From Candidatus Woesearchaeota archaeon (lineage in GTDB: Archaea; Nanobdellota; Nanobdellia; Woesearchaeales; UBA9642), in assembly GCA_003599145.1 (NCBI GenBank), contig QZIT01000005.1, forward strand, positions 1 to 59,501: DNA of 59,501 bases. Reading direction: 5' to 3'. The notes beneath the pieces are model-generated. The model searched no databases. It saw only the letters and a list, made by a program, of their open reading frames with translations, and had not been told where the DNA came from. The translations under genes and the position numbers were made by a program. Below are positions 6,534-59,322 of this stretch, one piece after another (the stretch's first letter is position 1; each line of letters begins with the position of its first letter).

Positions 6534-6611
6534 CACCATCACCTTGTATGTACACCCGTGGTGTTCTTTGTAGAGCTCTTCGTGTCCTATGTATATTGCC
6601 AATGTTACGAA

Positions 6612-6699
6612 TAGCCCCGCTCGGATTCGAACCGAGGTCCCCGCCTCCAGAGGGCGAGATGATTGGTCTGTGTCCAATTGACCGCTACACTACGGGGCT
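6612..6699 (-). tRNA. tRNA-Gln(CUG) with a 15-nt intron in the D-loop
   Basis: The acceptor stem AGCCCCG/CGGGGCT pairs perfectly, with discriminator A at 6612 and no encoded CCA. Anticodon stem TCGCC/GGCGG encloses loop CTCTGGA, giving anticodon CUG (6650-6648). T-arm CTCGG TTCGAAT CCGAG is normal. The D-arm is 15 bases too long. The excess, TTGGACACAGACCAA (6677-6663), is framed by GGTC pairing with GACC, and each strand is followed by the bulge AAT. Cutting AA|T at both bulges leaves GGTCAATCAT, a normal D-loop and D-stem, with the junction at about position 21/22. This matches the archaeal splicing-endonuclease motif in its relaxed form without an inner helix. Confidence 0.88.
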
Positions 6700-6783
6700 A
6701 TATGCTGAAGAAGCAGCGCTTGTTTTTTAAAAGTTTGTATTTTTAGCTAACTTTTTAAAGTGCAACTGCTTTTCAAAAGGGTC

Positions 6784-58907: not shown

Positions 58908-59189
58908 ATGCATGAAGATAACTCTATCTTTATCGGAACAAAGCCTTTCATGAACTATGTAACCAGCGTTGTTATGCAGTTTACCACAAAAGGCGCAACC
59001 ACTGTTTTCATTAAAGCCAGGGGAAAATTCATAGCAAGAGCAGTGGATGTTTCTGAAGTCGCAACAAAGAGATTCTTAAAAGATAAAATCAAAGTGGATA
59101 CTATCAAAATTGACAGCGAGGAGTTCAAAAATGTAGAAGGGAGGCAAGTGAGAGTTTCTACTATAGAAATTGCCTTAATTAAAATCTAA
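58908..59189 (+). CDS. albA: Alba chromatin protein
   Basis: 93 residues from ATG 58908; an in-frame GTG at 58899 would overlap the S17e stop. Alba signatures: NSIFIGTKPFMNYVTSVVMQF, VFIKARGKFIARAVDVSEVATKRFL and the C-terminal VSTIEIALIKI. The Lys acetylation-type loop residue lies in the KARGKFI region. It binds DNA and RNA as a dimer. Second gene of the S17e operon. Confidence 0.95.
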   Translation: MHEDNSIFIGTKPFMNYVTSVVMQFTTKGATTVFIKARGKFIARAVDVSEVATKRFLKDKIKVDTIKIDSEEFKNVEGRQVRVSTIEIALIKI

Positions 59190-59229
59190 TTCAATATCTT
59201 TTTATATACGTTCTTTTTCATTGTAGTAT

Positions 59230-59322
59230 GGGCCTGTGGTGTAACCAGGATAGCACAAGCGGCTTCGGACCGCTTAATCTGGGTTCGAACGAGACTAACT
59301 CATGAAAATCCCAGCAGGCTCA
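59230..59322 (+). tRNA. tRNA-Arg(UCG) with a 19-nt intron in the T-loop
   Basis: Acceptor GGGCCTG/CAGGCTC pairs (one G-U), discriminator A at 59322, no encoded CCA. D-stem GTGT/GCAC. Anticodon stem AGCGG/CCGCT with loop CTTCGGA, anticodon UCG. T-stem CTGGG (59279-59283) and CCCAG (59310-59314) enclose 26 bases instead of seven. TTCG (59284-59287) can pair with TGAA (59303-59306), followed on each strand by bulges AAC and AAT. Cutting AA|C and AA|T removes CGAGACTAACTCATGAAAA (59290-59308) and leaves TTCGAAT, a normal T-loop with the junction at 59/60. GAG/CTC forms a short inner stem. TATA TTTTTATATAC (59203-59213) lies upstream. Confidence 0.9.

What the first reader, a model, noticed from the sequence alone, without database searches (positions are those of the whole stretch)
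59230..59322. tRNA-Arg gene interrupted in the T-loop by a 19-nt intron at position 59/60
Seen directly: the T-stem encloses 26 bases. TTCG/TGAA forms the central helix; bulges AAC and AAT follow; cutting after AA leaves TTCGAAT exactly. The central helix directly stacks on the T-stem and a GAG/CTC stem lies inside, so this is close to a full bulge-helix-bulge motif. T-loop introns at 59/60 are known in some Thermoproteota; one here with the D-loop intron suggests a broad-specificity splicing enzyme in this lineage.
Basis: partly seen in the sequence, partly recalled or inferred. Interest (0 to 1): 0.78.

Follow-up and report, generated by a model that had tools for sequence, protein, structure and literature searches.

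The report
Archaeal arginine tRNA with T-loop intron
An arginine transfer-RNA gene in a small-genome archaeon is interrupted in its T-loop by a 19-base intron that the cell's ordinary tRNA-splicing enzyme should cut out; this intron position was already known, but here it turns out to be common across a whole order whose only detectable splicing enzyme lacks the features usually thought necessary to handle such introns.

Summary
Window 59230-59322 (+) is a tRNA-Arg(UCG) gene with a 19-nt insert (59290-59308) between T-loop positions 59 and 60. The insert forms a near-complete bulge-helix-bulge splice motif. Removing it gives a perfect tRNA that ARAGORN recognises; with it in place ARAGORN sees nothing. 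Intron-free orthologues occur downstream of the same neighbouring gene (alba) in related genomes. No second tRNA-Arg(UCG) was found. At least four other tRNAs of this genome (Arg-CCU, Ala-UGC, Asp-GUC, Gly-UCC) also carry 59/60 introns.

Position 59/60 is a known archaeal intron site, so this is a new member of a known kind. Two points go further. First, T-loop introns recur across the order, in many isotypes, and in tRNA-Arg(UCG) of Micrarchaeota, Thermoplasmata, Asgard archaea and others, with a covarying central helix. Splicing is inferred; no RNA data were available.

The parts
59203..59212 (+). TATA-like stretch about 20-25 bases before the tRNA gene; probable promoter
   Evidence: read directly; function inferred
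59230..59322 (+). tRNA-Arg(UCG) gene, unspliced, 93 nt
   Evidence: spliced form recognised by ARAGORN, unspliced not
59230..59289 (+). 5' exon, tRNA positions 1-59, ending TTCGAA
   Evidence: intron-free orthologue L026 is 92% identical over query 1-59
59290..59308 (+). 19-nt T-loop intron CGAGACTAACTCATGAAAA at 59/60
   Evidence: fold; splicing test; conserved architecture in other genomes
59309..59322 (+). 3' exon, T60 to discriminator A73
59284..59287 (+). central helix, exon strand TTCG (positions 54-57)
59303..59306 (+). central helix, intron strand TGAA
59288..59290 (+). 5' bulge AAC, cut after AA
   Evidence: cut site inferred from the BHB rule and the mature T-loop
59307..59309 (+). 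3' bulge AAT, cut after AA
   Evidence: cut site inferred
59291..59301 (+). inner stem-loop GAG-ACTAA-CTC, followed by one unpaired A (59302)
58908..59189 (+). alba-type DNA/RNA-binding protein gene just upstream; anchors synteny in four same-family genomes
   Evidence: the name Alba rests on recognition of the sequence, no family search was run

Best explanation
This is a functional, single-copy tRNA-Arg(UCG) gene carrying a short archaeal BHB intron at position 59/60. In the precursor the first four T-loop bases (TTCG) pair with TGAA in the intron, extending the T-stem and presenting two 3-nt bulges. The splicing endonuclease EndA cuts in both bulges (after AA on each side), and the RtcB ligase joins A59 to T60, restoring TTCGAAT so that the T-loop can fold and be modified. 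Shown: the anatomy, the conserved architecture, intron-free orthologues, and the presence of EndA and RtcB genes. Inferred: transcription, cleavage and ligation. The intron is probably a gain in this lineage, because same-family orthologues lack it; loss in the others is not excluded.
For: Exact fold. ARAGORN recognises only the spliced gene. Same-family genomes G001, G003, G004 and G005 have intact tRNA-Arg(UCG) downstream of alba, and G002 has an intact T-loop. G083 has an intron-free 92% identical gene followed by a homologous small membrane-protein gene. The same architecture with other intron sequences occurs in tRNA-Arg(UCG) of G015, G042, G017 and G020, found by exon similarity only. 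Covariation and inner-stem tests. Four other tRNAs of this genome have 59/60 introns. CGA codons occur in 43 of 66 window ORFs, so the tRNA is needed. EndA with the catalytic Y/H/K positions and RtcB are present.
Against: No RNA evidence. The 5' site is not a strict bulge because one A faces it. The only EndA found looks like a narrow-specificity layout, so efficient cleavage is not assured by precedent.
Confidence: 0.95

Rival explanations
1. The gene is a pseudogene: an insertion broke the T-loop and another gene supplies tRNA-Arg(UCG).
For: No RNA data; the genome is 97.5% complete, not closed.
Against: No second copy; all stems intact and A15-T48 kept; the insert has BHB anatomy in register; the same interruption recurs in many isotypes and genomes.
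Confidence: 0.03
2. The insert is the scar or edge of a mobile element that integrated into the tRNA 3' end, not an intron.
For: tRNA 3' ends are common integration sites; one relative (L031, G067) shows a duplicated tRNA-Arg 3' end close by; the Arg-UCG and Arg-CCU genes share 23 nt across intron end and 3' exon at 96% identity.
Against: Integration normally restores an intact tRNA; the window insert is 19 nt with no duplicated tRNA end; the conserved feature is the central helix rather than primary sequence.
Confidence: 0.02
3. The tRNA works unspliced with an enlarged T-loop.
For: None found.
Against: TTCG would be locked in a helix and could not form the T-loop/D-loop contact; intron-free orthologues and exact restoration of TTCGAAT argue for removal.
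Confidence: 0.01

Closest known systems
Archaeal BHB tRNA introns at noncanonical positions, including 59/60 (listed in PMC4090602; survey work on Thermoproteales cited there)
   Same: Same insertion point, same BHB logic, short intron, T-loop restored exactly.
   Different: Host is a 1.3-Mb member of an order containing Woesearchaeota/Nanoarchaeota genomes, not a crenarchaeon; the enzyme layout differs.
epsilon2 / ARMAN-type (Micrarchaeota) splicing with broad specificity (PMC6379350, PMC12397907)
   Same: Micrarchaeota carry the same 59/60 interruption in tRNA-Arg(UCG).
   Different: The window's EndA is one unit of 227 aa, not the three-unit 390-aa fusion; the order's introns are less often strict BHB than the genome-collection set (8/31 against 39/58, p = 3e-4).
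Nanoarchaeum equitans (alpha-beta)2 EndA (3IEY)
   Same: Closest solved relative of the window's EndA (E = 6e-39 to the alpha chain).
   Different: No beta subunit found, although the beta chain 3iey_B itself is within reach of the search (E = 8e-17).
Methanocaldococcus jannaschii alpha4 EndA (1A79)
   Same: Single-unit protein aligned almost without gaps, catalytic Y/H/K kept, no extra loop.
   Different: The alpha4 type is described as narrow in specificity (PMC6379350), whereas this order has many relaxed T-loop motifs.

Membership tests
Archaeal BHB tRNA intron at 59/60 | Insert between T-loop positions 59 and 60 whose removal restores a normal tRNA | tested here: met
Archaeal BHB tRNA intron at 59/60 | 4-bp central helix flanked by two 3-nt bulges in register with the cut sites | tested here: met
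   base 57 partner covaries
Archaeal BHB tRNA intron at 59/60 | Inner helix directly adjoining the 5' bulge (strict BHB) | tested here: inconclusive
   inner GAG/CTC stem present but one A intervenes on the 3' strand: relaxed form
Archaeal BHB tRNA intron at 59/60 | Splicing endonuclease and 3'-phosphate ligase encoded | tested here: met
   EndA, RtcB
Archaeal BHB tRNA intron at 59/60 | Excision in the cell | not testable with these tools
   no RNA data available
(alpha-beta)2 EndA with Crenarchaea-specific loop | Second (beta) subunit gene | tested here: not met
   one copy only; one clear copy in nearly all relatives; a very divergent beta cannot be excluded
(alpha-beta)2 EndA with Crenarchaea-specific loop | Crenarchaea-specific loop with conserved Lys | tested here: not met
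   9-residue insert of A. pernix absent in the window EndA and 28 relatives
epsilon2 (ARMAN) EndA | Three-unit fusion of about 390 aa | tested here: not met
   227-aa single-unit protein
alpha4 EndA | Single-unit protein as sole EndA, forming a homotetramer | tested here: inconclusive
   single unit met; oligomeric state not testable here

The most novel reading that the evidence does not exclude
In this archaeal order a single-subunit EndA, without beta partner and without CSL or ASL loops, removes relaxed-BHB introns from T-loops of many tRNAs. That would break the published rule that only (alpha-beta)2 and epsilon2 enzymes do this efficiently, and would make the order a second hotspot of noncanonical tRNA introns with within-genome intron spread.
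Probability: 0.4. Interest if true: 0.5.

Novelty: new member of a known kind. Interest (0 to 1): 0.35.

Why it matters
The single gene is ordinary by archaeal standards. The wider pattern matters in two ways. Standard tools miss these genes (ARAGORN and Rfam both do here), so tRNA sets of such genomes look incomplete. And the order pairs many T-loop introns with what looks like a homomeric EndA, which gives a clean test of what really determines EndA's substrate range.

Tried and rejected
Two of five own-genome pattern hits (L063, L064) have no tRNA context. A second EndA hit at C4:74634 (E = 0.13, four stops) and a lysine-rich hit at C1:44044 (E = 0.013) were rejected as a beta subunit. Bacterial hits in the collection scan are intact tRNAs or chance. 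The expectation that this order's introns would be strict BHB, given an alpha4-like enzyme, was tested and failed. The phylum-wide EndA scan was meant as a positive control for two-subunit genomes, but none with two clear full-length copies turned up. The primary paper on ARMAN EndA was not held. The RNA structure z-score of the whole gene is modest (-2.15) and was not relied on.

Full report
WHAT IS THERE. The window positions 59230-59322 on the + strand read GGGCCTGTGGTGTAACCAGGATAGCACAAGCGGCTTCGGACCGCTTAATCTGGGTTCGAA / CGAGACTAACTCATGAAAA / TCCCAGCAGGCTCA. The outer parts make a complete tRNA: 7-bp acceptor stem, D-arm with GG, anticodon arm with UCG, a four-base variable region giving an A15-T48 pair, and a 5-bp T-stem. 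The T-stem encloses 26 bases instead of 7. One unpaired A (59302) lies opposite the 5' bulge, so the 5' site is a 3x1 loop and the motif is slightly relaxed. Removing 59290-59308 leaves TTCGAAT. ARAGORN finds no tRNA before removal and tRNA-Arg(tcg) after. Rfam also misses the unspliced gene at its gathering score.

INDEPENDENT SUPPORT FOR THE BOUNDARIES. A genome of the same order (G083) has a 92% identical tRNA-Arg(UCG) without insert and with T-loop TTCGACT. It is followed by a small membrane-protein gene homologous to the one after the window's tRNA (E = 7e-7). In the window's own family, G001, G003, G004 and G005 have an intact tRNA-Arg(UCG) downstream of the same alba-type gene, and G002 has an intact T-loop. 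Four other genomes found by exon similarity alone (G015, G042, G017, G020) have T-loop inserts in this tRNA with other sequences but the same TTCG/CGAA central helix; a fifth, G137, has an insert without the clear helix. The insert therefore comes and goes at one position, as introns do.

NOT AN ISOLATED CASE. In the own genome (1.31 Mb, 97.5% complete) the pattern GTTCRAA-gap-TGAANNTCC gave five hits against none for the reversed control; three are in tRNAs. Together with genes found by other routes, five tRNAs have 59/60 introns: Arg-UCG (19 nt), Ala-UGC (27), Asp-GUC (37), Arg-CCU (139) and Gly-UCC (18, with only three pairs in the central helix). Isotypes were read by eye from the anticodon arm; ARAGORN misassigns Ala and Asp because they also hold anticodon-loop introns. 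tRNA-Trp has an insert at 53/54. A tRNA-like gene at 6611-6700, read by ARAGORN as Cys, is by inspection tRNA-Gln(CUG) with a D-loop insert. Across 145 genomes of the order, 119 match the T-loop pattern, which alone includes some chance hits and intact tRNAs; of 33 matches in the 30 loci read in full, 27 have a perfect 5-bp T-stem after splicing, in isotypes including Ala, Pro, Leu, Trp, Ile, Asp, Lys, Val and Arg. A scan of about 85,000 species genomes for tRNA-Arg(UCG) with this interruption gave 68 stretches. About 59 are real by T-stem and ARAGORN, all archaeal by title: mostly Micrarchaeota and contigs labelled Marsarchaeota, then Thermoplasmata, Woesearchaeota/Nanoarchaeota, Asgard and others; the bacterial hits are intact tRNAs or chance.

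STATISTICS. Over 89 introns with a perfect T-stem, base 57 and its intron partner covary: A57 with T 57 times and C once; G57 with C 24 times and T 7 times (Fisher p = 2e-14; 1e-4 within the order). The order-level own-genome hits were found with T fixed, but the other sets allowed either letter, so this is not built in; related rows are not independent. The inner helix starts exactly beside the 3-nt bulge in 39 of 58 introns of the wider set (about 4 expected) and 8 of 31 in the order (1.7 expected). The order is thus more relaxed (p = 3e-4).

THE ENZYME. The genome has one EndA (227 aa with a lysine-rich N-terminal extension). It is closest to the N. equitans alpha chain, then to M. jannaschii EndA. 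Pfam, NCBIfam and direct protein searches find no second subunit, although the N. equitans beta chain is within reach of this query (E = 8e-17). Nearly every relative also has one clear copy. The 9-residue Crenarchaea-specific loop is absent in the window EndA and in 28 relatives; the catalytic Y, H and K positions are kept. RtcB is present. Published work ties efficient removal of relaxed motifs to (alpha-beta)2 and epsilon2 enzymes and to CSL/ASL loops (PMC6379350, PMC12397907). Either the order has a hidden partner subunit, or a lone EndA here is broader than the rule allows. This is the one open question the finding raises.

MECHANISM. Most likely (0.95): the precursor is cut in both bulges by EndA and joined by RtcB. 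Anatomy and genes are shown; transcription, cutting and joining are inferred. CGA codons occur in 43 of 66 window ORFs and no second tRNA-Arg(UCG) was found, so the gene very probably has to work.

NOVELTY. Position 59/60 is on the published list of archaeal intron sites (PMC4090602), and T-loop BHB motifs are reviewed in PMC6379350. Very intron-rich tRNA sets have been reported in Asgard archaea (PMC11291895). In the open-access library searched I found no account of T-loop introns in Woesearchaeota-type genomes, but subscription papers were not covered. The gene is a new member of a known kind. The order assignment rests on two matching loci: L073 (Nanoarchaeota archaeon RS_12_52) equals the locus of G017, confirmed by sequence, and L072 (Woesearchaeota ARS73) shows the same gene and intron as G030.

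Noticed in passing
window 6611-6700 (-): ARAGORN calls tRNA-Cys(aca), but the stems and loop CTCTGGA read as tRNA-Gln(CUG) with a roughly 15-nt D-loop insert.
   Followed up: partly
L057 / G000:C3:14914-15127 (-): tRNA-Arg(CCU) has an unusually long (139 nt) T-loop intron whose last 10 bases (CTCATGAAAA) equal those of the window's Arg-UCG intron, hinting at exchange between the two genes.
   Followed up: partly
L021 / G000:C3:152255-152357 (-): tRNA-Trp(CCA) carries an insert between positions 53 and 54, just before an intact TTCAAAT T-loop, with CTGG of the T-stem able to pair with CCAG in the insert.
   Followed up: partly
relatives G123, G040, G023, G058: T-loop introns of different places in one genome resemble each other more than expected (0 of 1000 label shuffles reach the observed mean): likely within-genome intron spread.
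   Followed up: partly
L031 (G067) and L202 (G002): The 3' end of tRNA-Arg(UCG) appears to be repeated about 100 bases downstream, like the attachment repeats left by an integrating element.
   Followed up: no
L058:745-1428 (G000:C1:554244-554924): EndA has a lysine/glutamate-rich N-terminal extension of about 57 residues that most relatives lack or have in shorter form.
   Followed up: no
L061 / G000:C1:103262-103370: The intron-bearing tRNA-Ala(UGC) lies directly behind the 16S rRNA gene end, so rRNA and T-loop-intron processing may be coupled on one transcript.
   Followed up: no
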